Shown: piece after piece, positions 1 through 40,932 of the stretch | How positions within the stretch are numbered: position 1 is the first letter of the stretch | Layout of the letters: the number at the start of each line of letters is the position of its first letter | Assembly: GCA_026014545.1 (NCBI GenBank) | Contig: JAOZIH010000010.1 | Location: 1 to 40,932 of the forward strand | Origin: Candidatus Bathyarchaeota archaeon | Lineage (GTDB): Archaea; Thermoproteota; Bathyarchaeia; Bathyarchaeales; Bathycorpusculaceae | DNA: 40,932 nucleotides | Reading direction: 5' to 3' | The notes under the pieces: generated by a model | Databases searched by the model: none | What the model was told of the DNA's origin: nothing | Seen by the model: the letters and a program-made list of their open reading frames with translations, nothing else | Program-made: the position numbers and the translations under genes

Positions 1-110
1 TCCTCAACAGGCCAGTGGCTCTCCTCAACAGGAATTGTTTCGCCTGCATTGAAATAGGCGTTAAAAACGCATCTGCGATGCTGCGCCGCCAATTTAGGAA
101 GCGCATCCAC
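1..110 (-). CDS. Partial gene fragment running off the left edge, unknown function
   Basis: An open minus-strand frame runs from a possible GTG at 110 to the window edge, giving 36 residues that include NAYFNAGETIPVEESHWPVEE. The composition looks protein-like and the PVEE motif is repeated, encoded by the direct repeat tcctcaacagg at 1-11 and 22-32. There is no Shine-Dalgarno site before the GTG and a TGA lies three codons upstream of it, so this may instead be the remnant of a broken gene. No family recognised. Confidence 0.35.
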   Translation of the reverse strand, partial: MDALPKLAAQHRRCVFNAYFNAGETIPVEESHWPVE

Positions 111-339
111 AACATGTCAAGGTTGCTGCGCAACAAACCCACTGATTCATACTGCTTATTACTGCTGATTCATACTGCTGATTACTGCTGAAATGTACTG
201 TTGATTCATATTGCTGAAACATTTATACATCAGAAGCCTTCATGCATTAGGCACGTCTGCAATCCACGTTAGCGTATTCCACTGTGAACTTGGCCTACCT
301 AACGCTTTATTAAACCTCCAAGCCGCTTTCGCAGCCTCC
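111..339. other. Non-coding stretch with short imperfect repeats
   Basis: No convincing gene in either strand. Positions 143-216 hold several imperfect copies of gattcatactgctgatt and tactgctgatt, a short-period pattern that resembles the ttactg repeats of the G/T-rich block further right. The rest is unremarkable. Confidence 0.5.
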
Positions 340-1065
340 CCTTAAACCTTTACTCCTCAAAAATTCCCACTCCAAGCCCACCCCAAAACGCTCCAACCCC
401 GGCTCCAAACCCGGCTCCAAACCATTCAAAACCCGCTTCAAACCGCCTAAACCGTCTAACCCGCTTCAAATTGCCTATAAATTGCCTATAAATTGCCTAA
501 ATTGCCTAAATTGCCTAAATTGCCTAAACCGTCTAACCCGCTTCAAACCGCTTCAAGACGCTTCAATCCGCCTAAGCTGTCCTATGTGTGGCTACTTAGT
601 AATGTGCGCGTCCACTCATCCTTCTCAACCGCTCTTTTCCTTTTCCACCTCACGCTTCAACCTACATTCAACCTTACATTTAAACAGCAAACCATACAGC
701 CGAAGCTAAACCGCCCCCGGCCAACCAAAAAACCCTGAAAAAACACGCCAAACCACACCAAAATAAACCCACCACCCAAACCACGTCGAACCGCCAAAAC
801 CTAACGCATAAACCTAAACCGCCCAAAACACGCCAGCAAACAAACCCACCATCCAAACCACACAAACCACCCAACACGCCCAAACCGCCCGAACCCACGC
901 CTAAACCGCCCAAACCCACACCAAAAATAAACCCACCGCCCAAACCTAACGCCCACACCTAAACCGTCAAAACCACGCCCAAACTTAAACCACCCAAACT
1001 TAAACCGCCCAAACCAAACCGCCCAAGCCGAAGCCGCCCAGCCCACCAAAGTAAACTTAAACCCC
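340..1065. repeat. Low-complexity A/C-rich block (degenerate short repeats)
   Basis: About 725 bases in which the plus strand is almost only A and C with some T and very little G. It is built from degenerate units such as ttgcctaaa (four near-perfect tandem copies at 488-528) and aaaccgccc / aacccacc. Frequent CCC runs mean the complementary strand carries many GGG runs and could form G-quadruplexes. The open frames on the complement are glycine/valine/phenylalanine-rich, lack start signals and are treated as composition artefacts. The block ends at a small inverted repeat, ccgc aa gcgg near 1063-1072, where the base bias flips. Confidence 0.75.
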
Positions 1066-1720
1066 CGCAAGCGGTTTTTGGGTTTTTGGATTGTTGGTTT
1101 GTCAGGTTGCTTTTTACTGTTTTCTTTATGGGTTACTGTTTTGTTTATGGGTTACTGTTTATTTAATGGTTATTGTTTAATGGGTTGTTCGCTGGTTACT
1201 TTGGATTATTATTTGGATTACTGCTTAATGAGTTACTGCTTAATGATTACTGTTTAATGGATTACTGTTTAATGATTACTGTTTAATGAGTTATTGTTTA
1301 ATGGGTTACTAGTTGGATTATTTGGGTTACTGGTTACTATTTACTGTTTGCTGGATTATTGGATTATTGGATTATTGGTTACTTTTTGCTGTTTGGATCA
1401 TTTGGAATACTGTTTGCTGGTTACTTTCTGTTTGGATCATTATTTGCTGGATCCGGGTTACTGTTCGCTGGTTACTTTGCTGGTTACTTTGCTGGTTTAT
1501 TTGGTTTATTATTTGCTGGATTATTCGGGTTACTTTGCTGGTTTATTTGGTTTATTGGTTACTGGTTAATGGTTGCTGACCGATGATGTCTAATATCTTT
1601 ACTAGTTACTGCTTTGTTTACTGGTTACTGTGCTGTTTGCTGGTTAATGTTTTGTTTACTGGCTTAATGACGTCTAATATTGATGACCCGCTATTGATGC
1701 TTAATGCCGATGTCTAATAT
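1066..1720. repeat. Low-complexity G/T-rich block (degenerate ttactg repeats)
   Basis: Directly after the A/C-rich block the plus strand becomes G/T-rich and C-poor. It contains many degenerate 14-17 base units of the form gattactgtttaatg (clear between 1150 and 1310) and, further on, ttactggttac and ttggattatt units. Overlapping open frames read as L/W/Y/F-rich strings in all three plus frames, which is what such a repeat must produce; none has a ribosome binding site, so no gene is called. Confidence 0.75.
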
Positions 1721-1739
1721 TATACTATTCTAGCATCTA

Positions 1740-2060
1740 TCATCTATCAATTACTTAACTTGGCATACCTGTTTAACATGTCATGCCACATACTGCCAGA
1801 ATAATTAACGAACACTAAACATGCTTTAACAGCAACCTGGCTTACCAAACTAACAACCACTAACAACCAATAACATACAGAACCAACAACCCAAACCAAA
1901 AATAAGTAAACTCAAAACACAAACAAACAAAAAAAAAAAAAAGAGGAACTAGAAAGGATGGCGGGGGGTGTGAGTTTACTTGGTGGTCGGGTGATTGGTT
2001 GGGCTGGTTTTTTCTGGTTTTACGGCTGCGTTGGTTTGCAGGTTTGCGGGTTAGCGGCTT
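1740..2060. repeat. Second, shorter A/C-rich then G/T-rich block pair
   Basis: From about 1740 to 1945 the plus strand is again A/C-rich and ends in an A-run of about 14 at 1929-1942. From about 1950 to 2060 it is strongly G/T-rich (ggcggggggtgtgag, gtttgcgggttagcgg). This repeats, at smaller scale, the amino-to-keto switch seen at 1065. No gene is seen. The block ends just before the promoter of the plus-strand operon. Confidence 0.6.
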
Positions 2061-5399: not shown

Positions 5400-7499
5400 T
5401 TATGTTGCTATGATTGTTTGTTCGTATGTTTTGCGCATTCTGAATTCTGCTTGTTTGCCTTCGTTCCATTGGTCTACTGGCCGTAGGTATCCTACGACGC
5501 GTGAGTATACTTCGCATTTGCTGCCGCAGTATGGGCATGTGGGTGTGTTGCCGTTTATGTAGCCGTGTGATTGGCAGATGCTGAATGTTGGCGTTAGGGT
5601 TATGTATGGCAGCTTGAATGCTGATAGGATTTTTTTGATGAGTTGTTTTGCTGTTTCTCCATTGTGTAGGCGTTCGCCGAGGTAGATGTGGAAGACTGTG
5701 CCTCCTGTATATTTCGTTTGAAGTGGCTCTTGGTTTTCCAATGCGTCAAAAAGGTCTATGTTGGCGTCTGCTGGCGGCAGTGTGCTTCCAGTGTAGAATG
5801 GTGTGGCGTGTGCTTGCTTCTCGTTTGCCGTTATTATTTGCGGGTATTTTTTCTTGTCTATTTTGGCGAGTCTGTAGCTTGTGCCTTCGGCGGGTGTTGC
5901 TTCGAGGTTGTAGAGGTTTCCTGTTTCTTCTTGGAATTTTGTTATTTTTTCCCGTATGTGTTCGAGTATTTGTATGGCGAGTTTCTGGCCTTCTGGTTTA
6001 ATTATTGAGGCGCCGATCATGTTGAGTAGGGCTTCGTTCATTCCTATGATGCCTATTGTGGAGAAGTGGTTTTTCCAGTATCCGCCGTGTCTTTCTTTTA
6101 TGTTTCGGAGGTAGAAGCGGCAGTATGGGTAGAGCTGTTTTTCAGTGAAGCGTTCTAGAGTTTTGCGTTTTATTTCAAGGCTTTCTTTTGCGATTTCCAG
6201 CATTTTATCGAGTTGCTCGTAGAATTTTCGTTCGTCTCGTGCTATGTAGCCTATTCTTGGAAGGTTTATTGTTACGACTCCGATGCTGCCTGTTAATGGG
6301 TCGGCGCCGAATAGGCCGCCGCCTTTTTTGCGTAGTTCTCGCGTGTCAAGTCTTAGTCTACAGCACATGCTTCGGACATCTTCTGGCTTCATGTCGCTGT
6401 TGATGAAGTTTGCGAAGTAGGGGATGCCGTATTTTGCAGTCATCTCCCAGAGTTCTTTGGCTGTTTCGCTGTCCCAGTCGAATTCTGGCGTGACATTATA
6501 TGTTGGTATTGGGAATGTGAATACTCTGCCTTCTGCGTCTCCGCTTGTCATTACTTTCATGAAGGCTTTGTTGAACATTGCTACTTCTTTTTCGTAGTCT
6601 CCGTATGTGGTGTTTTGGAGTTCGCCTGCTATTATTGCTGGCATGTTCTGCATGAATTTTGGCACGTGTAATCCCAATGTAATGTTGGAGAATGGTGTTT
6701 GCCCGCCGACTCTTGTTGGGACATTCATGTTGAATATGAATTCTTGCACTGCCTGGTCTACGGCATGCTGATTTAGGTTGTCGCTTCTGATGAATGGAGC
6801 AAGGTACACGTCTATGTAGCTGAATGCTTGTGCACCTGCTGTTTCATTTTGCAGTGTGTAGATGTAGTTTACTATTTGTCCAAGCGCTGTCCGGAAGTGT
6901 TTAGCGGGTTTGCTGGCGATTTTTCCCTGTGCGCCCTTGAAGCCTGTTGTCAGCAGATCGAACATGTCCCAGCCGACGCAGTACGCTGCAAGCATGCTGA
7001 GGTTGTGGATGTGTATGTCGCCGTTTTTGTGTGCCTCAGCTATTTCAGGGGGGTACAGCTTGTTTAGCCAGTAGTTTGCGACGACTGTTCCTGCCAAATA
7101 ATTGTTTAGGCCCTGCAGTGAGTAGGTCATGTTGGCGTTTTCTTTGACGCGCCAGTCTTCCATGTCAATGTATGATTCTACCAGTTCTACTTGTCCAAGC
7201 AGCAGCGCGAGTTCACGCATTTCTTGGTGTTGGCGTCTGTACAGTATGTATGCTTTGGCAACTTTGTCGTATCCTTTCTTTATCAGCGTTTTTTCTACGA
7301 TGTCCTGTATTTCCTCGACTGTTGGTACGCCGTCGTCGCCGTACTTCTGAATTAAAGTGGCTACTACATCTCTGCTTACTTCTTCTGCTGTTGCCCTGTT
7401 TTTGCCGCCGACAGCCTTTGTTGCTTTCCATACGGCTTCGGTGATTTTGTCTGCATTGAACTCTGCGAGTTTTCCATCTCTTTTTCTTACATATTTCAT
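5400..7499 (-). CDS. nrdD: Anaerobic ribonucleoside-triphosphate reductase, class III
   Basis: Makes deoxyribonucleotides from ribonucleoside triphosphates without oxygen, using a glycyl radical. The 699-residue protein has an N-terminal ATP-cone (about 1-95, starting MKYVRKRDGKLAEFNADKIT), the ten-stranded barrel with GDIHIHNLSML and the SMCCRLRLD cysteine region, and an intact C-terminus: a zinc site made by cysteines near 642, 655, 658 and 662 followed by RVVGYLRP with the radical glycine near 670. Length is normal. ATG 7499 has aaggtg upstream. No nrdG-type activase (GCNHRC-like motif) is found nearby; the activase must come from the host or from one of the other radical SAM proteins, which do not look like it. 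Confidence 0.97.
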   Translation of the reverse strand: MKYVRKRDGKLAEFNADKITEAVWKATKAVGGKNRATAEEVSRDVVATLIQKYGDDGVPTVEEIQDIVEKTLIKKGYDKVAKAYILYRRQHQEMRELALLLGQVELVESYIDMEDWRVKENANMTYSLQGLNNYLAGTVVANYWLNKLYPPEIAEAHKNGDIHIHNLSMLAAYCVGWDMFDLLTTGFKGAQGKIASKPAKHFRTALGQIVNYIYTLQNETAGAQAFSYIDVYLAPFIRSDNLNQHAVDQAVQEFIFNMNVPTRVGGQTPFSNITLGLHVPKFMQNMPAIIAGELQNTTYGDYEKEVAMFNKAFMKVMTSGDAEGRVFTFPIPTYNVTPEFDWDSETAKELWEMTAKYGIPYFANFINSDMKPEDVRSMCCRLRLDTRELRKKGGGLFGADPLTGSIGVVTINLPRIGYIARDERKFYEQLDKMLEIAKESLEIKRKTLERFTEKQLYPYCRFYLRNIKERHGGYWKNHFSTIGIIGMNEALLNMIGASIIKPEGQKLAIQILEHIREKITKFQEETGNLYNLEATPAEGTSYRLAKIDKKKYPQIITANEKQAHATPFYTGSTLPPADANIDLFDALENQEPLQTKYTGGTVFHIYLGERLHNGETAKQLIKKILSAFKLPYITLTPTFSICQSHGYINGNTPTCPYCGSKCEVYSRVVGYLRPVDQWNEGKQAEFRMRKTYEQTIIAT

Positions 7500-7546
7500 G
7501 TTTTTTTCACCTTAAGGTTGATAGTCTCCCGTACTTTGCCCTGTAA

Positions 7547-8133
7547 CGCCCTCCTATAACTGGAGGAGGGCGATTTTAAAAGGGGCAAAACACGGGTGGA
7601 GGGGCTCCATTCATTTCCATGAAGGTTCACGGAGCCCCTTGACAGGCGGTAAACCGCCTGTTTCGGCCTACCGTAATACGCTGATGGCGAATCAGCGGCT
7701 GGACGATAGGCCAACCTCTACATGTAAAATCTCTTGGAAAACGAGTTTTACATGTAGAAGCAGCCGAAGCTTCCCGTTGAGAGGTTTTCTGGGAAGCTTG
7801 GCTTCTTCAGAAGGGTTTCCAGCTCATCAGAAAAGGGGCAGGGGAGCACCCTTTCCTGGAACACATCGGATGGATTATCTTTTACAGAAGCTGGTGTGCC
7901 CCCGTAAAAGACGCCGGAAAATCCATCCGGAATAAATTATATCAGCCGCTTCATCCGCTTGCCTGTTGGCGGCTGATGTTTTGGCAAGCATCGCGAACCT
8001 GCACGGTGTTTCGGGAGAAGTGAGCGCGCGATTTTTCCCTAGACGCTGTTGCCCTTTCCCCATGGGAAGCTACCACAGCCGCGTCCGCATCCAGTAGCTT
8101 ATAGGGCGGAGGTGATATTCCGTGCAGGTTTTT
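7547..8133. ncRNA. Candidate large structured non-coding RNA
   Basis: Nearly 600 bases without a credible gene, more G/C-rich than its surroundings and filled with perfect inverted repeats: 7601-7608/7631-7638; 7643-7650/7653-7660; 7665-7670/7707-7712 enclosing 7680-7685/7691-7696; 7717-7729/7746-7758 (13 bp); 7767-7775/7791-7799; 7867-7876/7920-7929 enclosing 7878-7885/7904-7911; 7941-7949/7969-7977; and a long-range 11-bp pairing 7996-8006/8120-8130. Such density of nested stems is typical of large ornate RNAs. Orientation is not settled; the A/T-rich box at 8147-8160 could start a minus-strand transcript near 8130, at the outer stem. I do not recognise RNase P, SRP, group II intron or a known riboswitch in it. 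Confidence 0.6.
7573..7580 (-). promoter_or_regulatory. Possible TATA box for nrdD
   Basis: On the minus strand the sequence ccttttaaaatcg sits about 75 bases before the nrdD ATG and is the only A/T-rich box there. Transcription would start near 7550, inside the perfect inverted repeat cgccctcc / ggagggcg (7547-7554 and 7565-7572), so that repeat could act as an operator or as part of a leader hairpin. Confidence 0.35.
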
Positions 8134-8150
8134 CACGCTTGCTTCTAAAT

Positions 8151-8186
8151 ATTTATATTTTAGACCATGCCTTAATAAGGCATGGT
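8151..8186 (+). promoter_or_regulatory. Promoter with perfect 23-bp operator-like palindrome
   Basis: The TATA-like box atttatatttt at 8151-8161 is followed at 8164-8186 by accatgcctta-a-taaggcatggt, a perfect palindrome with 11-bp arms around one base. It covers the expected transcription start (about 8180) and ends nine bases before the ATG of the nuclease-like gene, an ideal position for repression. A hairpin in the leader is the alternative. Confidence 0.65.
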
Positions 8187-8194
8187 AGAATGGA

Positions 8195-8839
8195 ATGTTC
8201 AGTAAGTACGCGCAGATAGCTGAGCATCTTCAACAGTTAGACGGTAACAAGGTAACTTTGTCTTTCAGCGATATAGAGCGGCTGCTCGGCGCTTCGCTTC
8301 CTAAGTCTGCTCGACGGAGCCGTAAATGGTGGTGTAATGATGTTAGTCATGTTCAAGCTAAGTATGGCTGGCTTACTTCCGGCTGGCACGTGAAGGATGT
8401 TGATTTTGAAGGGGAAACTGTTAGTTTTATTAGACGTCGCGATGCATCTGCATGTTTGATGTTGAGACCTATAGACGAGTTTAAGACGTCAGCGCTACAG
8501 CGGCTTTCACAGTTTTATGGTGTACGTTTTGTTAGGGGTGTAAAAGCGAAGTTGCAGACGGCTCATGGCGTCGTCGAGAAAAATTTTGATTTTGGTTCTG
8601 AAGACGGCCAGATAGTCTGTAAGGTTATGTATTTGACTGAGAAGGGTAATCCAGCGGCGCGTTTCCAAGGGATAACTGTTAACGCTATGCTTCTTGAGAA
8701 GGCGCTTGCAAAGGAGAGGCTGCTGGTTTTCGGCGGAGACAAGATTGTTCCTCTATTATGGCTTGAGAGCGCATATGCGTGTTTAGTGGACAATGTAAAA
8801 CTCGTTTATATCGGCGAGAAGGTTGAGGTTCTTAATTGA
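8195..8839 (+). CDS. DUF7662-like protein with a PD-(D/E)XK-like C-terminal domain
   Basis: A 214-residue protein. Residues 1-80 carry the pattern LSFSDIERLLGASLPKSAR, then WW-N, QA and GWHVKDVD, which matches a small domain (DUF7662 by my recollection) often attached to nuclease-like modules. Residues 105-180 read FDFGSEDGQIVCK, then PAARFQGI, similar to the D-x(n)-(D/E)-x-K core of restriction-type nucleases, although the expected second acidic residue before Lys143 is replaced by Cys, so activity is uncertain. It is expressed behind the 23-bp palindrome and overlaps the next gene. A defence or addiction role with its partner is inferred. Confidence 0.75.
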   Translation: MFSKYAQIAEHLQQLDGNKVTLSFSDIERLLGASLPKSARRSRKWWCNDVSHVQAKYGWLTSGWHVKDVDFEGETVSFIRRRDASACLMLRPIDEFKTSALQRLSQFYGVRFVRGVKAKLQTAHGVVEKNFDFGSEDGQIVCKVMYLTEKGNPAARFQGITVNAMLLEKALAKERLLVFGGDKIVPLLWLESAYACLVDNVKLVYIGEKVEVLN

Positions 8840-13986: not shown

Positions 13987-14721
13987 TTAAATTAGTGGGC
14001 ATTCCTGTGTTTTCACTTGTTTGAATGTTTCTTCTAATGTTGAATATTCAAATTTTGTTTTGATGTTGCTGCATTTACTTGCTTTTCCCTGCTGGTTTAT
14101 GCTCATGGATGTTACGCCTTGCCTGCATTTTGCAATGCCAAGTTTGCATGCTAAACAGGCGTCAATCCATAGTCTCTTATGCTTTTTCTGTGCAAGCTTG
14201 AATGCTTGCTTCCAATCAGTGAATGTTGCCCGCGGCTTTTCCATAAGAAGCACTATTGTTGGCGCTGGAAGCTTCAATGCTTCTTGAAGATGCCTCATGT
14301 CTGTTACGATGTGGTTTATGCCAACTTGCATTTTTCTGCTGTAATACTTTATTGCCCGTTGCGCTTCGTTGAATGTTGTTTGGTGAATTTCATCGAATGA
14401 CACGTGAACTCTGTCAGCATAAATATTCTTTAGTATTGTACCGTTTGTTGTGACGGAAACGTAGAAGCCGCGTTTTTTAGCTTCAGCTGTTACTTCTTCT
14501 ATGTGTGGATGCAGCATTGGTTCGCCGCCGCCTAAAGCAAGTGACCGAACATTATGTTGTGACCATTCATTGAAGAACTGGAGGATGCGATTCATATCTA
14601 ATTCGCCGTTATTTTTATAGTAGCATTTTGGGCATGAAATATTGCATTTTCCCGTCAGAAGCATGTGAATTGAAAGTGGCGTGCGATAGCTCCAGTTTGC
14701 TATTTTAACAGTTTGCGTCAT
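13987..14721 (-). CDS. Radical SAM protein with SPASM-like cysteine cluster
   Basis: A 244-residue protein with the Fe-S motif CNISCPKC (cysteines 26, 30, 33), the SAM-binding LALGGGEPMLHP and VSVTTNGT strands, and a C-terminal cysteine cluster (ACLACKLGIAKC, KCSN, ECPLI) of the SPASM/twitch type that holds auxiliary clusters in peptide-modifying enzymes. ATG 14721 overlaps the upstream TGA by three bases (ATGA). It is shorter than most SPASM enzymes. A substrate peptide is not evident; the coupled 87-residue and 60-residue proteins upstream are candidates. It does not look like NrdG. Confidence 0.9.
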   Translation of the reverse strand: MTQTVKIANWSYRTPLSIHMLLTGKCNISCPKCYYKNNGELDMNRILQFFNEWSQHNVRSLALGGGEPMLHPHIEEVTAEAKKRGFYVSVTTNGTILKNIYADRVHVSFDEIHQTTFNEAQRAIKYYSRKMQVGINHIVTDMRHLQEALKLPAPTIVLLMEKPRATFTDWKQAFKLAQKKHKRLWIDACLACKLGIAKCRQGVTSMSINQQGKASKCSNIKTKFEYSTLEETFKQVKTQECPLI

Positions 14722-14981
14722 ACTTGAACCGCCTTTAACGTGTTTTGAGCGGCTCCTAAAACATGAACTCGGAAGCGGATAACACCATTCTCGCATTTGG
14801 GTATTTTATCGCTAAGAATATTGTAAACTCTTAGATGCGCATATTCTGGATGATTCGTTTTAAGTTCCTCCAGCGAATCATAAAATGGCGTCATAAAATC
14901 CATGACTATCGTGCTGAACACGCCATAACAAATTTTTCCATTCTCTTCTACTGGCTGAATAACTTTAGGCAAAAGCATCAT
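14718..14981 (-). CDS. Hypothetical protein, 87 aa, coupled to radical SAM gene
   Basis: A soluble protein, MMLLPKVIQPVEENGKICYG at the N-terminus and a basic beta-rich end (VIRFRVHVLGAAQNTLKAVQ). Its start lies inside the end of the preceding gene and its stop overlaps the radical SAM start, so stoichiometry with the radical SAM enzyme is likely controlled. It could be a substrate or partner. No known family. Confidence 0.7.
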   Translation of the reverse strand: MMLLPKVIQPVEENGKICYGVFSTIVMDFMTPFYDSLEELKTNHPEYAHLRVYNILSDKIPKCENGVIRFRVHVLGAAQNTLKAVQV

Positions 14982-23094: not shown

Positions 23095-24630
23095 TCACCT
23101 CTGTTGACTAAATAAAGTTTCAACAAACAGTTTTCCTGCATCATCTGGCTTCGCAACAAATATTTTAATTGCCTTATCAGGGTTTTTCGCGATTACAGTT
23201 GTTTTCGGATCCGGATTTATAACCACTGCAATCACAGAATTTGCTTTTGCATTTTCTTTTAGACTCACAACGTCATGTTCTTGGACGAAGCCGTCAGTTA
23301 TCACTGCTATCAACGCATTTTTCGCTTTTTTAGAGACAAGTGCTGCTGCACATGAAAGGTTTGTGCCTCCAAATGGGCTAAGCTTAAAAACGCTTACGCC
23401 ATGCTCAAGATAATCTTTCGATTCTTTACATATAGTGCATGCTGCATCGTTGAACGCAATGGTTAAAACCGGCAGATTATACGTTTTCGCATATGCGATC
23501 AGCAGGTAAGCCGCTTCCTTTATGTAATGGAGAATTGGCTGTTTATTATATATTGCAGCGGTGCTTCCCGAATAGTCGACCAAAAGCACAATTTTAGAGA
23601 AGCCTCCTTTACTGCCCGGCTGCTCGATGCTGAGGATAGTGTCAACTATAGGCTCCCGCCATCTCCAAGGATCATCAGGAGCCTTCATAATACTGTTCTC
23701 ATCGATGCGTTTTGAATACGGACGCCATCTTCGTGAGCAAGGCTCTTTAAGATCTAAATACGATTTTGCACCTATAAGATCCTTGAATCCTTTAATGTTC
23801 CTCCATAAGGATTGCCTTACATTGTCTTTTGCAGCCTTCTCAATCGCCTCTTTCACTTTATCTATGTCTTCCTCTAAAAAGTCAGCTATATCACCGACAC
23901 TTAATCCTTTTGATAATCCAATAGCGATGGCGGTGTTTTTCACTTCAGGATCATTTATATCATAGAAGCTTTGGTCGCCATAGCCTTTGCTTTGAGCAGA
24001 CATTTCGTTGCATTTGGATAGCTGCATAACTAAGGTTGCTGCTTTAACTATCATTTCTACAACGTCGTTATCGCCGTATTTTTTAGTGGCTAACATTTTC
24101 AAAAGAGACTTAAGCTGGTTGAAATCTCTGTTTAACCTTATTTCCTTTTCATAGGTTGTTTCTTTCAATGGCACACCAAAGAAGTCTTTGTATATTATTT
24201 GCAGCAAATGATAGCTTGTTCCTTCCTCTTTTACTGGAAACCGATTGAGCCATTCAACACACATGCCTTTCGCGTCAAGACGTTCCTTCTTCACTTGCAT
24301 GTCAACGATTACGTCGTACACTACATTCAAAGCGTTTTTGACGGTTGCTTTTGACTTTCCCAAGTTGCTTATCAATGTAATCTCATGTAACAATGCATCC
24401 TTGTATGTGTAAGGTAGCCCATCTCTAGATGCATGCTTTATTTCATGCATAAACAACTCTTCTTTATGTGTAATGGAACTCCAGTATGGGGGCGCATACA
24501 CAGTCATTTTCGCAAGATCAACACTGAAAGTTGCAGCCTGCGGGTCTTCTTTAACATGCAGAGGCGGCGGAATAACGCTTGCTTTTTTTATTGTATTCTC
24601 AAAAACCTCTTGAAGACTGAGGGGTTGCAT
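23095..24630 (-). CDS. HExxH metallopeptidase-like/VWA protein (DUF2201-type), copy 1
   Basis: A 511-residue protein. Residues 45-110 contain HEIKH at 62-66, a zincin-like site; the middle is helical; the C-terminal VWA domain has the MIDAS motifs DYSGS (352-356), FGGTNL and VITDG. This is the DUF2201-type architecture, in which a degenerate metallopeptidase and a VWA domain work with a MoxR ATPase to remodel client complexes. ATG 24630 is chosen because ggagggg sits six bases before it; ATG 24645 overlaps the upstream stop. It lies between MoxR copy 1 and the SWIM gene. Confidence 0.9.
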   Translation of the reverse strand: MQPLSLQEVFENTIKKASVIPPPLHVKEDPQAATFSVDLAKMTVYAPPYWSSITHKEELFMHEIKHASRDGLPYTYKDALLHEITLISNLGKSKATVKNALNVVYDVIVDMQVKKERLDAKGMCVEWLNRFPVKEEGTSYHLLQIIYKDFFGVPLKETTYEKEIRLNRDFNQLKSLLKMLATKKYGDNDVVEMIVKAATLVMQLSKCNEMSAQSKGYGDQSFYDINDPEVKNTAIAIGLSKGLSVGDIADFLEEDIDKVKEAIEKAAKDNVRQSLWRNIKGFKDLIGAKSYLDLKEPCSRRWRPYSKRIDENSIMKAPDDPWRWREPIVDTILSIEQPGSKGGFSKIVLLVDYSGSTAAIYNKQPILHYIKEAAYLLIAYAKTYNLPVLTIAFNDAACTICKESKDYLEHGVSVFKLSPFGGTNLSCAAALVSKKAKNALIAVITDGFVQEHDVVSLKENAKANSVIAVVINPDPKTTVIAKNPDKAIKIFVAKPDDAGKLFVETLFSQQR

Positions 24631-24644
24631 AGCAAGCCCCTCCA

Positions 24645-26189
24645 TTACCGCTTCGCTTTAGTTGCCGTATTCGCAGACGCATTTATAGACTCTATAGCCA
24701 TTTTAAGCTTGAGCTGCGGCTCAAGTATATCTAATGCCGTTGTTTCATCTTTCTTTCTCGCAGCCTCTTTAATCATATCTATTATTTCGTCAAGCAAAGC
24801 TCTGATAACCAACGCATCTGCGTATTTCTCCCGTAATTCTTTGGCCTGCGTCGCATCTGGCTTCTTTATCAAATCCTCAATTTCCCTTATATTGAGACGT
24901 GACGACGTAAAGTATAGTATGTATTTGTTGATTAGCTCTTTTGTTGCCGTGTAAATGCTTCCGTATTGCGCCAAGAACTCCTTGTTATTCCATGATAGCC
25001 TATGAGGCAGCACTGCAAGAAGCGCGTAATTCAGGTCTGCGTAATCAGCAGTTTGCCTCATATTCAAGAAGGCATGTGCTTTCATCGCCTGTTGCAGTCG
25101 TATCATTGTCCTGACTTTGCCCACATTCGCTAAGCCACATGGATACTCATTGTAAATGCATAATGAACATTCCTTGTCAGTTTCAAACGGATCTTTGCTT
25201 TCCTCGTAACGTACTGAAGTGCTTGTTGCAAAGTAGCAGCGGGACAAGTGACTAACAATCCCCATGCAGAATACTATGAATTCTTCTGGTATCGTGACTT
25301 CCTCAATGTATTTTCGGGCTTGATAAACAAGCTCCACTGGTATTTTTTTCGCAAGCTTCATTTTTTTCCAGCGTTCATTCATCAACAATACTTCTTGGGC
25401 GCTGGGCGGCAAACTGCGTGCACTCAACGCATATCTGTCAGCAGTTGCAACATTGACTATTTGAAGGTTAGTTTGATAAAACTGGTTAAGAGGGTTTGTC
25501 GCCAGAATCCACGCTAAAGGTTTAGTTTCGATTTGACCAATGTTTGTATCCACAACTTTTTCGTTTAATGCATGGTGAAGTTTCGAGAGAAGCCTTGGCG
25601 CATTGAAACATTCATCTATAACTACAATGTCTGCTCCTGAAATTTTGCCAGATTTAACTGCATGCGGAGGTTTTTGTCCAAGTATTGCCGGATGGTCTAT
25701 GCTATATCCCATAATATCTTCGGGATCCATTTGGTCGTTAACTTGCATGTTGAAGACTCTTACTGGAACTCGCCTTACGCTACCAAGAGTCTCGGCAGCT
25801 GGATGTTTTACAAGGTCAATTTCAATGTTAACGGTTACAACATCATTATACTGTTCGTACTCAATGTTTACGCCGTCAACAAGATTTGACATTAAATTTT
25901 TGCAGTCAACATTTAATCGCCCAGCAAGCTCATCAAAGAACTTTTCCAGTTCCTCTCTCCCTTTGAATTTATGTTTCAACGTGACAACAGGCTTGTCAAA
26001 TAGATTGCCGATGAACGCGGCCATGCTGGTTTTAAACACGCCGTGACTGCCTATTAACAGAACCGGCTCTCCTATGAGCATGCCACAGCATATCGTCTCA
26101 ATCATTGTATATTGATGGTAGCCGCGATAAACATCTGCAACTGACTTGACAAGCTTATTGAAAACTTCAGAAACCTCTTGAAAACTCAT
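24645..26189 (-). CDS. MoxR/RavA-type AAA ATPase, copy 1
   Basis: A 514-residue ATPase. Walker A is GSHGVFKTS (about 47-55), Walker B ADIVVIDECFN, sensor 1 WILATNP and arginine finger region ATADRY; the C-terminal half is helical. MoxR ATPases act with VWA partners in chaperone-like maturation. The ATG at 26189 or GTG at 26198 (overlapping the upstream TGA) may be the start. Larger than the second copy (388 residues) and only distantly similar, so not a recent duplication. Confidence 0.92.
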   Translation of the reverse strand: MSFQEVSEVFNKLVKSVADVYRGYHQYTMIETICCGMLIGEPVLLIGSHGVFKTSMAAFIGNLFDKPVVTLKHKFKGREELEKFFDELAGRLNVDCKNLMSNLVDGVNIEYEQYNDVVTVNIEIDLVKHPAAETLGSVRRVPVRVFNMQVNDQMDPEDIMGYSIDHPAILGQKPPHAVKSGKISGADIVVIDECFNAPRLLSKLHHALNEKVVDTNIGQIETKPLAWILATNPLNQFYQTNLQIVNVATADRYALSARSLPPSAQEVLLMNERWKKMKLAKKIPVELVYQARKYIEEVTIPEEFIVFCMGIVSHLSRCYFATSTSVRYEESKDPFETDKECSLCIYNEYPCGLANVGKVRTMIRLQQAMKAHAFLNMRQTADYADLNYALLAVLPHRLSWNNKEFLAQYGSIYTATKELINKYILYFTSSRLNIREIEDLIKKPDATQAKELREKYADALVIRALLDEIIDMIKEAARKKDETTALDILEPQLKLKMAIESINASANTATKAKR

Positions 26190-26194
26190 TGCAA

Positions 26195-27319
26195 TCACTC
26201 TACAGTAAACAGTAATATTGAATTGCCCTGCGCTGTTTTTCTAGCGAGCTCCATATCCCTAATTGGATCTCCAGTAGGAGACATCCCTAACGACTGGACA
26301 AGCTCGTTCACAGCATTCTTCAGTGTTAAAAGATCATTTTTGCCTGCAACATTTAACACGTTGCTGACAGCATCAAAAGATTTAGTGTCAAACTCTATGC
26401 CTGCATTTTTTATAAGCTGCGTCAACGAGTTCAAACGTTTTGCAGCAGTCTTACTATTTAACGCTGAGGTTCTTCTTTTGAAGGCATCCTTCACCACCTG
26501 CTCAACCAATGCTAATATAGTGGCGAAACGGTCTTGTAGATCCTTTGACATTGCCTCAAGCATTTCCTGTCGTTTTTGCTGTATTTCTCTTTCGAGGGCA
26601 GCTAACCCTTCCTTCTTTTTCTCGTCGACCTCTTGAATTGCCTTGCGTTTTTCTTCTTGAAGGTAATTTAGAAAGAAACTTTTCGAAAGGCTTAATGGTA
26701 TAGGAGCAATCTTTATCTCTGGTAACAAAACGTTGCTTGCCATCTGGTTCTTGTCTACACTCTTAATGTATGTGACAACATCATTGAAGTAACTGCTTTT
26801 CTCGTAATTTGCAATTTCAATTTTCAAAGTGTTCAGTTTACTGTTTAATTCACCTATCTTATTCATTACTTCAGCAGCGCTGTTAGCCGGTAAAAAGTAC
26901 AGTTTACGCTTCATTCTGCCGATTTGTTCCTCTTGTATTATCAAGCAATTCTCGTTTAGAATATCGTAGACCATATGCCTAATGCTTTTTAAGCGGTTTA
27001 TCAGCAAGCTTGGATAAGGCTGGAAAGACACAATTTTTATCTGCTGGCCTTGTTGATTCTTTACATAGCGAGCTTTGATTGAACGTCTCCGCGTATTCGT
27101 GACGTTTTTCCCTGTTGCCAACGTTTTATAGTCAACATCTATCTGCTGTAGCATATTTTGAAGTCTTGAAACCCATGACATATGCCCAGTATTACTTAAC
27201 GAAGAAATGTCAACTTTAACAGACATTCTCTCCTCCGAAGGTACATCCACATTCACAAGGAACCCCTGCGTTAAAACACAAGAACCCTTTATTGGTCGAG
27301 GAATTTCAGTTTTCAACAA
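26195..27319 (-). CDS. Coiled-coil protein of the AAA/VWA operon, DUF3150-like
   Basis: About 374 residues. The N-terminus (PRPIKGSCVLTQGFLVNVDV) and the long helical middle (about residues 200-300, with KRKAIQEVDEKKKEGLAALE and following heptads) resemble DUF3150 proteins that sit between CobS-like ATPase and CobT-like VWA genes on integrative elements. TTG 27319 has ggagg eight bases upstream; ATG 27334 and TTG 27385 are in frame but lack good sites. Its TGA overlaps the MoxR start. Role as an adaptor or client-holding subunit is inferred from position. Confidence 0.75.
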   Translation of the reverse strand: MLKTEIPRPIKGSCVLTQGFLVNVDVPSEERMSVKVDISSLSNTGHMSWVSRLQNMLQQIDVDYKTLATGKNVTNTRRRSIKARYVKNQQGQQIKIVSFQPYPSLLINRLKSIRHMVYDILNENCLIIQEEQIGRMKRKLYFLPANSAAEVMNKIGELNSKLNTLKIEIANYEKSSYFNDVVTYIKSVDKNQMASNVLLPEIKIAPIPLSLSKSFFLNYLQEEKRKAIQEVDEKKKEGLAALEREIQQKRQEMLEAMSKDLQDRFATILALVEQVVKDAFKRRTSALNSKTAAKRLNSLTQLIKNAGIEFDTKSFDAVSNVLNVAGKNDLLTLKNAVNELVQSLGMSPTGDPIRDMELARKTAQGNSILLFTVE

Positions 27320-27444: not shown

Positions 27445-27885
27445 CTACAGCAAAATAGTACTGTGAATAAGCACTTCTTCAATATTTTTTCTTTCAAGGG
27501 CTATATTGAATAGTTTACGTCTCAGCCTCTTTGGAAAAGGAGCAATAATTTCGCTTAATGACTTAACATCCAAGTTTTCCTGTAGTAGACTCTCAGTCTG
27601 CTCATAGCATTGGAGAGTGTTGGGTCCCACCAGCTCTATAAGCTCAAACGCATCCTTTGTTTTCGAGCAGCCGTACTTTTCAAGAAATTCCGCATACTTC
27701 TCCTTTCTTAAGCTACTGTAAGAGTAGGTTACTGCATGCCATTCTTTGCAAACAGGACAAAAAACAGCCTTGTAAAAGAATTTGAAGTGGCGCGGTCTAT
27801 AACAGACAAACTTGTAACCGGGTAACTCTGCCTTTTTTGTATGTTTAAATTTGCCTGTCTTAGGATCGATAAATACTCTTACCAA
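27445..27885 (-). CDS. Zinc-site protein paired with radical SAM gene
   Basis: A 146-residue basic protein with FCPVCKEWH near residue 43 and a further cysteine in KYGCSK, then C-terminal helices (PFPKRLRRKLFNIALERKNI). The TTG start at 27885 lies inside the end of the radical SAM gene, with ggtg in that gene acting as ribosome site. A partner or substrate of the radical SAM enzyme is plausible. No family recognised. Confidence 0.75.
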   Translation of the reverse strand: MVRVFIDPKTGKFKHTKKAELPGYKFVCYRPRHFKFFYKAVFCPVCKEWHAVTYSYSSLRKEKYAEFLEKYGCSKTKDAFELIELVGPNTLQCYEQTESLLQENLDVKSLSEIIAPFPKRLRRKLFNIALERKNIEEVLIHSTILL

Positions 27886-28775
27886 GCAGAAACACCATCA
27901 ACTGTCAATTGGAAATATTTTCTAGGTATCTCATCTATTCTTTCAAATGGATAAGCCATACTTGAAAGACTGCTGAGTCTAACTTTTTTGTCAACACTTA
28001 TTGCCAGTATTCTTCCAGGCTTTTCATCGACAAACGGCATGAACCTGATTTTGTAACGCTTCAAATATGAAGCAAGCCTACAGCTTGTTTTGAAAGTTGC
28101 TTTGTCTCTATAATGTTTTATTAAAGCAGCTAAATTCCTGTAGTCACTTAATGTTGGTTCATAATTTTTCTGGTTAGCGCCTCTCCCGACAGGCCTGAAC
28201 GAATTAATCAGAAAATCGTTAACTCCCAGCTTCAGAGAATTCTCTATTACCTGTCTAATGAATTCGACGCCGTCATGATAGAGTATAACGTTTACTCCCA
28301 CATCGAATTCGCGGTTAACATACATACTTAAATTTTCAATGGACTTCGCTGTTCTTATGCTAACGCGGACTTCGCTTATCAAACCTTCAATTTGCCTCAG
28401 CTGCTCCTCAGTTGCCACTGTACCATTGGTTGTTAATGTCGCATCCAAACGTGTGCTTTTCTTAATGAACTCTGCTGCCTCAACAAGTCTAGTGTACAAG
28501 AAAGGTTCACCCCCGCCAAAGGATACACCGAACACGCCCCATTTATCGAGGAACATCAACAGCTGCTTAAGTTCATCGAAATCCCATTCCAGCGTTCTGT
28601 CAGGTGAAGACATGCTATAACAGAACCAGCATTTCAAATTGCATTTATCAGTCAACGCAATTTGGGCGAAAAGCGGAGCTTCCCACTTTTCCGACTTCAT
28701 ATCTGGATAGATAAAGCATCCGCCGTTTTCCCGGTCATAAATAAAGAGTCCATCCGGCGTAAGCAGACGCTTCAC
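27879..28775 (-). CDS. Radical SAM enzyme of the MoxR/VWA operon
   Basis: A 298-residue protein with CNLKCWFC (cysteines 45, 49, 52), the GGGEP motif (VSFGGGEPFLYT) and ATLTTNGT, the MoaA/PqqE-type core. The C-terminal part has only one cysteine (TSCRLASYL), so no SPASM cluster is present. GTG 28775, with ggggg upstream, ends the short gap after the 116-residue gene. It stands between two MoxR/VWA pairs, so it probably modifies a protein or cofactor handled by them; that is inference. Confidence 0.92.
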   Translation of the reverse strand: MKRLLTPDGLFIYDRENGGCFIYPDMKSEKWEAPLFAQIALTDKCNLKCWFCYSMSSPDRTLEWDFDELKQLLMFLDKWGVFGVSFGGGEPFLYTRLVEAAEFIKKSTRLDATLTTNGTVATEEQLRQIEGLISEVRVSIRTAKSIENLSMYVNREFDVGVNVILYHDGVEFIRQVIENSLKLGVNDFLINSFRPVGRGANQKNYEPTLSDYRNLAALIKHYRDKATFKTSCRLASYLKRYKIRFMPFVDEKPGRILAISVDKKVRLSSLSSMAYPFERIDEIPRKYFQLTVDGVSAW

Positions 28776-29948: not shown

Positions 29949-30227
29949 TTAACTTATTTGTTGCTGGCGCATAAGGTTACGTATACGCCACTTAACCTTT
30001 TTAGAGGTATATTTTATTGCTTTCTTAACATCTTCTGGTCTCTGGTTAATCAGAAAACGAAGTGCATCATAATCTCCGATGTATGCATTGCGATTAAGCT
30101 CCTTAATTAATTCTCTAATTGTTGATTCAACAAGAAGTTCTATGCTGTTTTCATCGAAAAGTCCAGTTGCAATAGCATCTTTAATTATCGGCCAAACAAG
30201 TGTTTCAAGTACTGCTTCAAGCTCCAC
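29949..30227 (-). CDS. Helical protein, 92 aa, coupled to VWA copy 2
   Basis: All-helical small protein (MELEAVLETLVWPIIKDAIA; ELIKELNRNAYIGDYDALRF). GTG 30227 lies ten bases inside the end of the VWA gene and has ggagggg upstream. Probably an accessory subunit of the MoxR/VWA complex. No family recognised. Confidence 0.7.
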   Translation of the reverse strand: MELEAVLETLVWPIIKDAIATGLFDENSIELLVESTIRELIKELNRNAYIGDYDALRFLINQRPEDVKKAIKYTSKKVKWRIRNLMRQQQIS

Positions 30228-31470
30228 GTAACCCCTCCTTATTTTTAGCGAAATCGATCTTTGTATGATAGAAACCTGGTGCGTGAACAGGAGTGTTTGT
30301 GTAGCCTACCATTGCAAAAGACGCTTTTTTCGCGATTATATCGAATAGACGCTGCGTTTCAGATTCTTCTTTATCGAAAATGTCGCCGTCCGTTAACACA
30401 ATAACAGCGTCGCCTCTTTTCATTAACTTATATGTTTTCTTTAGAACTGGCTTGATTACTGTTCCACCGCCGCCCTTCATTTTTGCGGCTACATTCTTGG
30501 CTACGTCAGCAGGCCTCTTAGCTATTAACACGTTGTATGCTTCAGCATCCCATGGTATAACGTAAACTTTGCTGTTTCTTGCTTCATGCTTAATTATTCC
30601 AAGAAAATATTTGAGCTGCTCTTCACTTATGCTGCCTGACGTGTCTATCAGGCACCAAGTGGTATTTGAATATTTCAAGGAGCCTGGATAATCGTCGCCT
30701 CGCCGACTCAAAACCATAAAGGAAGGATCTATATGCCTTAATCCTCTTGAGCCGAAGCGGGTGAGGATTTGCCAAGGCGGCTTGTACTCGATGACTTCGT
30801 CAACAAGTCTTGAAAGAGAAGCGGGGTAAACGCCAATGTTCTGCGCGAAATCTTTTGCTTTATTAGCTATTTGCCTCCATGCCTTCTCTTTTTCTGTTTT
30901 GTCAGCATTTGGGCTGAAGCTGCCTTCTTGTATCACCTCATCAGGCTCTATTTTACCGGTTAAATCAGACTTAAGAAAAACGTTTAATGCCTGCAATTTC
31001 AGGCTGATATTGCTACGTTCTAATATGCTTGCTATTTCTTCAGTGCTCATTTTTTTAAGGTCTTCATAGCTAACTCGATTGTTAAGCAAATCAGCTATGA
31101 CATTCAATGTTATAGGCTGAATGTTCATTTGGTGAATATTTATAACGTTGCTTTCTTCTATACCATCATTTATTTTCCCATCAGAAGCAATGTTATGCGC
31201 TATCTGCAAAAAACCCTTTGAACGCAAAGCATGAAGCAGACAGACATGGAGCATTTCATGAATTATAACAAACCGTTTTTCAATTAACGAAAGTTTTTCC
31301 CAAGCTTGCAAATTTATTATTAACGTATTATTCTCGTCGACCGCAGCTATTGGCACTGCCTTTGACGAGACAATCCTGACATAATTTAATGGCACAATAA
31401 CGAAAGGGAAATATCGGCTGCAGAAAACCCTGATGTCACGTAGCTCTTCAAGAAACTGTTTAGCATCCAT
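30217..31470 (-). CDS. HExxH metallopeptidase-like/VWA protein (DUF2201-type), copy 2
   Basis: A 417-residue protein. HEMLH at 71-75 followed by ALRSKGFLQIAHNIASDGKI is the typical DUF2201 N-terminal metallopeptidase-like domain; the C-terminal VWA domain has DTSGS (276-280), GGGGTVIK and VLTDGD as MIDAS elements. It lies 13 bases after MoxR copy 2. ggtgac precedes ATG 31470. It is the more canonical of the two copies; the pair should form a MoxR/VWA machine. Confidence 0.93.
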   Translation of the reverse strand: MDAKQFLEELRDIRVFCSRYFPFVIVPLNYVRIVSSKAVPIAAVDENNTLIINLQAWEKLSLIEKRFVIIHEMLHVCLLHALRSKGFLQIAHNIASDGKINDGIEESNVINIHQMNIQPITLNVIADLLNNRVSYEDLKKMSTEEIASILERSNISLKLQALNVFLKSDLTGKIEPDEVIQEGSFSPNADKTEKEKAWRQIANKAKDFAQNIGVYPASLSRLVDEVIEYKPPWQILTRFGSRGLRHIDPSFMVLSRRGDDYPGSLKYSNTTWCLIDTSGSISEEQLKYFLGIIKHEARNSKVYVIPWDAEAYNVLIAKRPADVAKNVAAKMKGGGGTVIKPVLKKTYKLMKRGDAVIVLTDGDIFDKEESETQRLFDIIAKKASFAMVGYTNTPVHAPGFYHTKIDFAKNKEGLRGA

Positions 31471-31483
31471 AAAAAGTCACCTG

Positions 31484-32650
31484 TCAAACAGGTGATAGCG
31501 CACGGCCAGTTGCTTCGAGACATTTGAACACCACTGGATTATCCTTTACAAGGTTGTATACTAATAGTCGTCTTTCCTTCTTGAGGAAAGTAAAGAACGC
31601 TGAAACAAATTCTCTGTCATCCTTTGTTGAAACAAACTCCAAAAATTTCTTTACGAGCGGCGCATTTTTAGCGTTGGCATTTATGTTTTCAGCTATTGTT
31701 AAGGCCGCAAGATATTTTTGTTCTATATTGAAGTTTACGATAACTGCAGGATTTTTAACAAGCTCCTGGAATGATGGAACTTTATTGCTGAGAAAAGCCA
31801 TTAATGTCTCGCCAACATTACCAAGCTTTCCTACCGCCACACTTCTGAAAAAATCCTTGTTTCTTGTATTCTTGCTTTTTAGCAATTTGAAGGCTAACGC
31901 AACATAAGACCAGCCGCGTGGCGTAGCAGGCGGTTCATAACCATTATCGTTTGACAGATTATCTGTAACGTTGGCTAAGAAGTCGCTTGGCTTCCACATC
32001 AAATACGCCAGCACTTCACGATCCCAATTTTCAGCGCCATAAGTCTTATCCATCCATTCAACCCATTCTTCAACACTGAATCCTGGAACTTCTATGAAGT
32101 CAAATCGGTCTCGCAGAGGCTTAGGTATGCTACCAACTAAACTGCTATACTGCGCAGAATTCGAAACAGCAACAACAAGCACACGTTTATTTAGTGCTAT
32201 ATCACCTATCTTGTAGTCGCGTACGATTTTATATGAGCTGGCAATCATCGTTTCACGCGTTTCGTTGAGAAATTCTTCAAGCACAAGCAACCCTGCGCAT
32301 GAGTGAAGCAGACGGGCAATACTTAACGGCACATAAGTTATGAACTTCGAATTACTGTAGGGTCTTGGTTGACCAGAAATATCTATTGGGTCCATGCCGG
32401 TTAATCGGCAATCTTTGAATATGTAATATTTATCGGGCGATTGAAGGTAATATTCAACTTCTTCTGGTAGAATTTGATCAGCATCGACAAATTCAAGGTT
32501 GAATTCACGTGCCTTCTCAATCGCCCATTCCCTGACAAATGTTGTTTTACCAACACCTGGAGGGCCTATAAGATGGGGTGTAATGTTTTCGAAGCCTTTT
32601 AGGCGCATTTCAAGGGCAAGGTTTAATCGAGTCTTAAGAAACGAATCCAT
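31484..32650 (-). CDS. MoxR-type AAA ATPase, copy 2
   Basis: A 388-residue ATPase with Walker A GPPGVGKTT (about 29-37), Walker B GLLVLEEFLN and sensor/arginine region VSNSAQYSSLVGSIPKPLRD. ATG 32650 has ggaggtgg upstream; the in-frame start at 32686 has none. Adjacent to VWA copy 2 as in DUF2201/MoxR operons known from many bacteria and archaea. C-terminal half helical. Confidence 0.93.
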   Translation of the reverse strand: MDSFLKTRLNLALEMRLKGFENITPHLIGPPGVGKTTFVREWAIEKAREFNLEFVDADQILPEEVEYYLQSPDKYYIFKDCRLTGMDPIDISGQPRPYSNSKFITYVPLSIARLLHSCAGLLVLEEFLNETRETMIASSYKIVRDYKIGDIALNKRVLVVAVSNSAQYSSLVGSIPKPLRDRFDFIEVPGFSVEEWVEWMDKTYGAENWDREVLAYLMWKPSDFLANVTDNLSNDNGYEPPATPRGWSYVALAFKLLKSKNTRNKDFFRSVAVGKLGNVGETLMAFLSNKVPSFQELVKNPAVIVNFNIEQKYLAALTIAENINANAKNAPLVKKFLEFVSTKDDREFVSAFFTFLKKERRLLVYNLVKDNPVVFKCLEATGRALSPV

Positions 32651-32666
32651 AAAACCACCTCCATCT

Positions 32667-32921
32667 TTAATGGAACGAATCAACATACACGCAAGTTTTC
32701 TTTAGTCTAAGATGAATGCAGAGGTTGTTTGTTTTATCTAGGAAATCGCATGTTGCACAGTGAAGAAAGGGGGTTGCAGGCGCAACTGTATTTTTAAGTT
32801 TGTCTGTCCAAGGCATGTTAATTTGTTTTCCCAATTCCACTAGAGAGTTTATCATTTGCTCTTCTGAATAATACATGCCTTGGATCACTTTTTCTTTTGT
32901 TATTCCCTTTTTTCTTGTCAT
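32667..32921 (-). CDS. Small four-cysteine protein
   Basis: An 84-residue protein: helical N-terminus (GITKEKVIQGMYYSEEQMIN) and C-terminal CATCDFLDKTNNLC and TCVYVDSF. The pattern CxxCxFLDKxNxxC then C-x-Y is also in the 38883 protein (CGGCNFLDKINRRC, NCAY), so the two share a zinc or Fe-S module. ggaggttg before ATG 32921. It heads the MoxR/VWA operon. Confidence 0.75.
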   Translation of the reverse strand: MTRKKGITKEKVIQGMYYSEEQMINSLVELGKQINMPWTDKLKNTVAPATPFLHCATCDFLDKTNNLCIHLRLKKTCVYVDSFH

Positions 32922-40792: not shown

Positions 40793-40850
40793 AGGCTATT
40801 AAGGCAGTAGCCTATAGAAAAACATTCTAACGAGAGGCTACTAATAGGAA
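40793..40850 (-). promoter_or_regulatory. Repeated GGCTA sites upstream of the regulator gene
   Basis: aggcta-ttaaggcag-tagcct (40793-40813) is an inverted repeat 20 bases before the ATG; aggctactaatagg (40836-40849) repeats the half-site, and the tandem repeat adds two more copies. Such clustering fits operator sites for the regulator. A weak TATA-like tttttctatag lies at 40812-40822 on the minus strand. Confidence 0.5.
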
Positions 40851-40932
40851 AAATATGAGAAGTAGAGTAGTTTTCAGGGCTACTAATAGGAAAAATATGA
40901 GAAGTAGAGTAGTTTTCAGGGCTACTAATAGG
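40837..40932. repeat. Perfect 42-bp tandem repeat cut by the window end
   Basis: Two complete 42-bp units (40837-40878, 40879-40920), identical, and 12 bases of a third (40921-40932). Each begins with gctactaatagg. The window stops within the array, as assemblies do in repeats, so the true copy number is unknown. Confidence 0.85.

What the first reader, a model, noticed from the sequence alone, without database searches (positions are those of the whole stretch)
7547..8133. Possible new class of large structured RNA upstream of nrdD
About 580 gene-free bases contain at least nine perfect stems of 6-13 bp, nested and with an 11-bp long-range pairing (7996-8006 with 8120-8130). That density is far beyond chance and resembles large ornate RNAs known from phages and bacteria. 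It does not show the conserved cores of RNase P, SRP RNA or self-splicing introns that I can recall.
Basis: partly seen in the sequence, partly recalled or inferred. Interest (0 to 1): 0.82.

Follow-up and report, generated by a model that had tools for sequence, protein, structure and literature searches.

The report
Orphan structured RNA leader upstream of nrdD
A gene-free stretch of about 620 bases, next to a DNA-building-block enzyme gene on a probable archaeal mobile element, folds into a chain of ten hairpins and looks like a real structured RNA of no known class, but only one copy was found, so covariation could not test it.

Summary
Window 7528-8142 folds far better than shuffles on both strands (z -10 plus, -14 minus) and is by far the most structured part of the window. 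It has nine perfect stems of at least 8 bp against 0.87 expected, including the 11-bp pairing 7996-8006/8120-8130. It has no Rfam match, even at E up to 10.

New here: in a strand-symmetric test the helices are completed by 11 G·U wobbles on the minus strand against 1 on the plus strand (p 0.003; 9:1, p 0.01 with automatic seeds; 41:36 in the rest of the window). This points to an RNA read in the same direction as nrdD.

No terminator-like U-run separates it from nrdD, whose ribosome-binding site lies just beyond it. The host's chromosomal nrdD instead follows nrdR behind an NrdR-box-like palindrome and has no structured leader. The nrdD in the window has neither box nor nrdR.

Best reading: a long structured 5' leader of a second nrdD on a probable archaeal mobile element, probably regulatory. 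Rival: a separate ornate RNA like ROOL or GOLLD. No homologue was found in 257 class genomes, about 400 phylum genomes, phages, plasmids, or exact-pattern scans of IMG/VR. Covariation, expression and function are untested.

The parts
7528..8142 (-). Structured RNA, about 615 nt, ten consecutive domains, read towards nrdD
   Evidence: MFE z about -13 to -14 on the minus strand; helix list with pair probabilities; strand test 11:1
7984..8142 (-). Domain 1: 8-bp helix 8142-8135/7991-7984, 4-nt symmetric internal loop, 11-bp helix 8130-8120/8006-7996, enclosing a branched interior
   Evidence: pair probabilities 0.97-0.98 for both closing helices
7941..7977 (-). Domain 2: 9-bp hairpin
7867..7929 (-). 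Domain 3: 10 + 15 bp long hairpin, several G.U on the minus strand
7822..7862 (-). Domain 4: 4 + 12 bp hairpin
7762..7803 (-). Domain 5: 13-bp hairpin
7714..7761 (-). Domain 6: 19-bp hairpin with the perfect 13-bp stem TCTACATGTAAAA
7664..7713 (-). Domain 7: 11 + 7 bp hairpin; fully paired only on the minus strand
7642..7661 (-). Domain 8: 8-bp hairpin with 4-nt loop
7600..7639 (-). Domain 9: 11-bp hairpin
7528..7596 (-). Domain 10: 14 + 9 bp hairpin, two internal G.U pairs on the minus strand
7500..7527 (-). Largely unstructured tail with a Shine-Dalgarno-like AAGGTGA about 7 nt before the nrdD ATG
   Evidence: sequence; mostly unpaired in the fold, except a predicted 3-bp hairpin 7518-7516/7511-7509 at P 0.82
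5400..7499 (-). nrdD, anaerobic ribonucleoside-triphosphate reductase, with ATP cone; about 65% identical to the family's chromosomal copies
   Evidence: PF13597 E 1.8e-201, PF03477; PRK08270 and TIGR02487; identities
8146..8161 (.). AT-rich run (TAAATATTTATATTTT), possible TATA element for the rightward DUF7662 gene and/or the leftward RNA
   Evidence: sequence only; inference
8164..8186 (.). Perfect 11-bp palindrome ACCATGCCTTA-A-TAAGGCATGGT, probably an operator of the divergent DUF7662 gene rather than part of the RNA
   Evidence: inference
8195..8839 (+). Divergent gene with N-terminal DUF7662
   Evidence: PF24698 E 5.3e-15; homologues; the two closest lack this RNA upstream

Best explanation
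The region is transcribed leftward (minus strand) as a large structured RNA of about 615 nt that forms the 5' leader of the nrdD in the window. SHOWN: extreme folding potential; minus-strand bias of wobble pairs; a spacer without terminator-like U-runs and a Shine-Dalgarno-like site directly before nrdD; the chromosomal nrdD of the same genome sits behind nrdR with an NrdR-box-like site and no such leader, while the window nrdD has neither box nor nrdR. INFERRED: the contig is a mobile element; the leader replaces NrdR control, tuning nrdD translation or mRNA stability through its fold (alone or with a protein or ligand), so that the element can supply dNTPs independently of the host's repressor. 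Not shown: transcription, transcript ends, ligand.
For: Fold z -14, largest energy excess in the window. Strand test 11 G.U vs 1 A.C, p 0.003; automatic seeds 9:1 (p 0.011), 7:1, 5:1; control 41:36. No U5 run on the minus strand across 8145-7500, though 56% of GC-matched minus-strand stretches also have none. SD-like AAGGTGA just before the ATG. Host nrdR-nrdD operon and NrdR-like box ACACTATAAATAGTGT; that box absent from the window and the general NrdR pattern no more frequent than chance. Upstream of the chromosomal nrdD z = -0.54.
Against: No homologue, hence no covariation. nrdD genes elsewhere, chromosomal and viral, lack such a leader, so a general link with nrdD is not supported. Ten robust hairpins are more than typical cis-regulators need. 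No expression platform with an obvious switch was identified; a possible 6-bp pairing of nrdD's AGGUGA with UCACCU at 8114-8109 is expected about 0.15 times by chance in a region this long. The promoter is not pinned down: a TATA at 8153-8160 would start the RNA inside the outer helix.
Confidence: 0.48

Rival explanations
1. A free-standing large non-coding RNA of the mobile element (minus strand), working like the phage ornate RNAs ROOL or GOLLD (assembly or scaffold RNA), that merely lies next to nrdD.
For: Length (about 615 nt) and density of helices match that group in general form (ROOL example 659 nt, homo-octameric cage, PMC12286853). No leader of this kind before other nrdD genes. Probable mobile-element setting.
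Against: No Rfam hit to any ornate RNA even at E <= 10. No tRNA island in the window. No terminator-like U-run before nrdD. Architecture is mostly a row of hairpins, with no pseudoknot network identified.
Confidence: 0.33
2. A single-stranded DNA element (single-strand replication origin, transfer or packaging signal) whose folded strand is the minus strand; G.T pairs in DNA would give the same strand bias.
For: Gene-free, between divergent genes, on a probable mobile element; the strand bias does not distinguish RNA from ssDNA.
Against: No relaxase or Rep protein was identified among the window proteins scanned; no GC-skew turn at the site; known origins usually have fewer hairpins (own knowledge).
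Confidence: 0.09
3. DNA-level palindrome cluster (protein-binding sites, nested small insertion elements or decayed repeats) with no RNA function.
For: Both strands fold well; an 11-bp palindrome lies next door (8164-8186).
Against: Strand bias of wobble completion 11:1; the hairpins are not repeats of each other and not repeated in the genome.
Confidence: 0.06
4. A very diverged member of a known RNA class (group II intron, RNase P, SRP, ornate RNA, riboswitch) that Rfam's models miss.
For: Orphan sequences from poorly sampled archaea can escape models. A piece at 8131-8108 recalls the 3' end of 16S rRNA (AACCTGC...ATCACCTCC).
Against: Nothing at E <= 10 with permissive filters except chance-level matches; the 16S likeness is not significant in an alignment null (p 0.42).
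Confidence: 0.04

Closest known systems
ROOL RNA (bacterial prophages and phages)
   Same: Size range (659 nt for ROOL env-120, PMC12286853), dense helices, no associated protein; probable mobile-element setting here
   Different: No sequence or covariance-model match; archaeal host; no tRNA island; directly before nrdD; tandem hairpins rather than an identified pseudoknotted core
GOLLD RNA
   Same: Large ornate RNA of phage/prophage type
   Different: No match; shorter than the over-800-nt GOLLD members; no tRNAs nearby
OLE RNA
   Same: Length of about 600 nt (own knowledge), highly structured
   Different: No match; bacterial, membrane-associated with OapA (own knowledge)
Long structured mRNA leaders controlling ribonucleotide reductase genes (e.g. 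cobalamin riboswitches before class II RNR genes; own knowledge)
   Same: Position before an RNR gene, same direction, site for ribosome binding just after it
   Different: No riboswitch model matches; much longer; class III RNR
NrdR/NrdR-box control of nrdD
   Same: Function proposed here (controlling nrdD)
   Different: The host chromosomal nrdD has this arrangement; the window nrdD lacks nrdR and the box

Membership tests
ROOL / GOLLD / OLE (Rfam large ornate RNAs) | Match to the family's covariance model | tested here: not met
   cmscan of the window at gathering thresholds and of 7300-8400 at E <= 10: no hit
ROOL / GOLLD / OLE (Rfam large ornate RNAs) | Covariation-supported multi-helix structure | not testable with these tools
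   no homologue found
ROOL / GOLLD / OLE (Rfam large ornate RNAs) | Homo-oligomeric assembly | not testable with these tools
   needs cryo-EM or native gels
ROOL / GOLLD / OLE (Rfam large ornate RNAs) | Often near phage tRNA islands (ROOL, GOLLD) | tested here: not met
   no tRNA in the window
Self-splicing intron (group I or II) | Catalytic core / domain V model match | tested here: not met
   no Rfam intron hit at E <= 10
RNase P / SRP RNA | Covariance model match | tested here: not met
Known riboswitch | Covariance model match upstream of nrdD | tested here: not met
Cis-regulatory mRNA leader (general kind) | Same strand as and directly before the gene, no terminator-like U-run between | tested here: met
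   strand test; no U5 run on minus 8145-7500; ATG at 7499
Cis-regulatory mRNA leader (general kind) | One transcript covering leader and gene; regulation depends on the structure | not testable with these tools
   needs RNA-seq and a reporter assay

The most novel reading that the evidence does not exclude
A new class of large ornate RNA carried by an archaeal mobile element, with no relative in Rfam, that either assembles on its own or controls a NrdR-independent ribonucleotide reductase by RNA structure in place of the host's nucleotide-sensing repressor.
Probability: 0.4. Interest if true: 0.8.

Novelty: new variant of a known kind. Interest (0 to 1): 0.56.

Why it matters
The large ornate RNAs examined structurally so far (ROOL, GOLLD, OLE) are bacterial or phage RNAs whose functions remain poorly understood (PMC12286853). 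An archaeal, probably mobile-element-borne example tied to a specific gene would extend the kind to another domain and give it a testable role. If it is the leader of nrdD, it would be a case where an element dropped the host's protein repressor (NrdR) and put a large RNA in its place to control dNTP supply. The case rests on one sequence, so the first need is a second copy.

Tried and rejected
(1) 16S 3'-end mimicry: minus strand 8131-8108 shares AACCTGC and ATCACCTCC with the host 16S 3' end, but in an alignment null the score is ordinary (p 0.42). (2) A homologous RNA upstream of DUF7662 homologues in G046 (L052) and G071 (L054): L054 has its own inverted repeats of other sequence beside a transposase-like gene; L052 has none of it. 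(3) A structured leader before the viral nrdD L031: its about 590-nt 'gap' is mostly coding sequence, an N-terminal extension with zinc-finger-like motifs. (4) Leaders of other nrdD genes: none comparable; the strongest, in Syntrophomonas, have about half the energy excess and were not pursued. (5) Short matches around 7720-7754 in many family genomes are chance AT-rich or coding matches. (6) The 98-aa plus-strand ORF 7639-7935: no family. (7) Absence of T5 runs on the minus strand is not unusual for this GC. (8) Single-sequence covariance models R1 (7597-7760) and R2 (7984-8142) matched only their own locus among class and phylum genomes; in held loci the extra matches above noise were on the opposite strand of the same region, as palindromes give. 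(9) Three exact-pattern scans of IMG/VR: nothing.

Full report
WHAT IS THERE. The window is the first 40,932 bases of a 45,202-base contig (G000:C32) in a 1.86-Mb genome of 41 contigs. The genome carries an archaeal 16S rRNA (RF01959, 1490 bits). The nearest named nrdD hits are Bathyarchaeota and Ca. Geocrenenecus, so the host is probably a member of or near Bathyarchaeia; this placement is inference. Between nrdD (5400-7499, minus) and a divergent DUF7662 gene (8195-8839, plus) lies the gene-free stretch in question.

OBSERVATION. Stem counts exceed dinucleotide shuffles about tenfold (9 vs 0.87 for 8 bp or more; 7 vs 0.20 for 9 bp or more). The 11-bp long-range pair is exact. Folding z-scores are -10.2 (plus) and -14.0 (minus), with no shuffle as good. 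A 200-nt scan of the whole window on both strands places its five largest energy excesses in 7501-7900, the minus strand first (-42.6 kcal/mol beyond shuffles). The region has 53% GC against 41% for the window, but the neighbouring genes also have 46-48%, and the shuffles keep composition. Rfam: nothing at gathering scores in the window; at E <= 10 only chance-level microRNA, snoRNA and CPEB3-type matches.

ARCHITECTURE (minus strand). Domain 1 is closed by an 8-bp helix (8142-8135/7991-7984) and, after a 4 x 4 internal loop, the 11-bp helix (8130-8120/8006-7996). Nine further hairpins follow back to back: 7977-7941, 7929-7867, 7862-7822, 7803-7762, 7761-7714, 7713-7664, 7661-7642, 7639-7600, 7596-7528. 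Nearly all main helices have mean pair probabilities of 0.95 or more. After the last hairpin come 28 largely unpaired bases with AAGGTGA, then the nrdD ATG.

STRAND. If the palindromes were selected as double-stranded DNA, imperfections would be as often G·U on one strand as on the other. Fifteen helices were seeded with Watson-Crick-only cores and extended by a rule that treats G·U and A·C alike. They show 11 G·U on the minus strand and 1 A·C (which would be G·U on the plus strand), p = 0.003. With automatic seeds of at least 6, 7 or 8 bp the counts are 9:1 (p 0.011), 7:1 (0.035) and 5:1 (0.11); the rest of the window gives 41:36. Caveat: the seeds were chosen after seeing the minus-strand fold, which is why the automatic version is given. 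The bias supports a folded single strand, most simply RNA, read towards nrdD; folded single-stranded DNA would give the same signal.

RELATIVES. BLASTN finds only the locus itself in the family (91 genomes) and class (257 genomes), and nothing but short chance matches in phage and plasmid collections. Covariance models of two domains find only the locus in the class, and one of them (R1) likewise in 398 genomes of the phylum. IMG/VR pattern scans are empty. About 100 other nrdD loci, chromosomal and viral, have no comparable structured sequence upstream. The DUF7662 homologues closest to the window's (L033/L052, L034/L054) lack it. So this is an orphan, and covariation could not be tested.

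SETTING. The contig is probably mobile. Its AAA protein (24645-26198) has one relative in 257 class genomes (G046, 65%), and a phospholipase-C-like and a DUF7662 homologue lie beside it. In G046 that cluster sits next to a tRNA gene and a tyrosine integrase, close to the 23S gene, as an integrated element would. An IS200/IS605 transposase and TnpB lie at C32 41.3-43.6 kb. The same genome has a chromosomal nrdD (66% identical, G000:C33) that overlaps nrdR (TIGR00244, 2e-45), behind ACACTATAAATAGTGT, which resembles a NrdR box; its upstream region has no unusual structure (z -0.54). The window has no copy of that site, and the general box pattern is no commoner than chance.

INTERPRETATION. Structure, direction, position and the missing NrdR arrangement fit a very long structured leader of the window's nrdD, possibly replacing nucleotide sensing by NrdR (0.48). 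The region is also of the size and density of free-standing ornate RNAs; ROOL env-120 is 659 nt and octameric (PMC12286853). Since other nrdD genes lack such leaders, that rival stays at 0.33. Transcription, ends and partners are unknown.

VERDICT. A real and unusual structured region, most probably an RNA on the minus strand, outside all Rfam classes, known from one copy. A new class is plausible but unproven.

Noticed in passing
window 1-2000: About 2 kb of degenerate low-complexity repeats (AAACCGCC-like, then GGTTACTTTGCTGG-like) with strong GC skew (-0.49 in the first kb), at the contig's end.
   Followed up: no
window 40836-40932: A perfect 42-bp tandem repeat, 2.3 copies within the window, running to the window end.
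   Followed up: no
L055 5344-7596 (contig 41343-43595, just beyond the window): IS200/IS605 element: TnpA-type transposase domain fused in frame behind an unrelated N-terminus (328 aa), followed by an RNA-guided TnpB (421 aa).
   Followed up: partly
window 8164-8186: Perfect 11-bp palindrome just downstream of a TATA-like TTTATATT and before the DUF7662 start codon; probably an autoregulatory operator.
   Followed up: no
window about 9400: GC content drops from about 47% (left) to about 38% (right), as if the contig joins two parts of different origin.
   Followed up: no
L194 2744-3226 and upstream: Archaeal nrdR-nrdD operon with the NrdR-box-like ACACTATAAATAGTGT before nrdR.
   Followed up: yes
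L054 9200-9360 (G071): Several copies of ATCTGCCGAAAAATTAACAA in both orientations beside a transposase-like gene, near a type I CRISPR-Cas cluster.
   Followed up: no
window 24645-26198 and 23095-24645; 31484-32686 and 30217-31470: Two AAA ATPase + VWA-like protein pairs on one contig (MoxR/VWA-type), unusual for a mobile element; function unknown.
   Followed up: no
window 13987-14796 and 27879-28775: Two small radical SAM proteins whose best NCBIfam hits, far below cut-off, are viperin-like.
   Followed up: no
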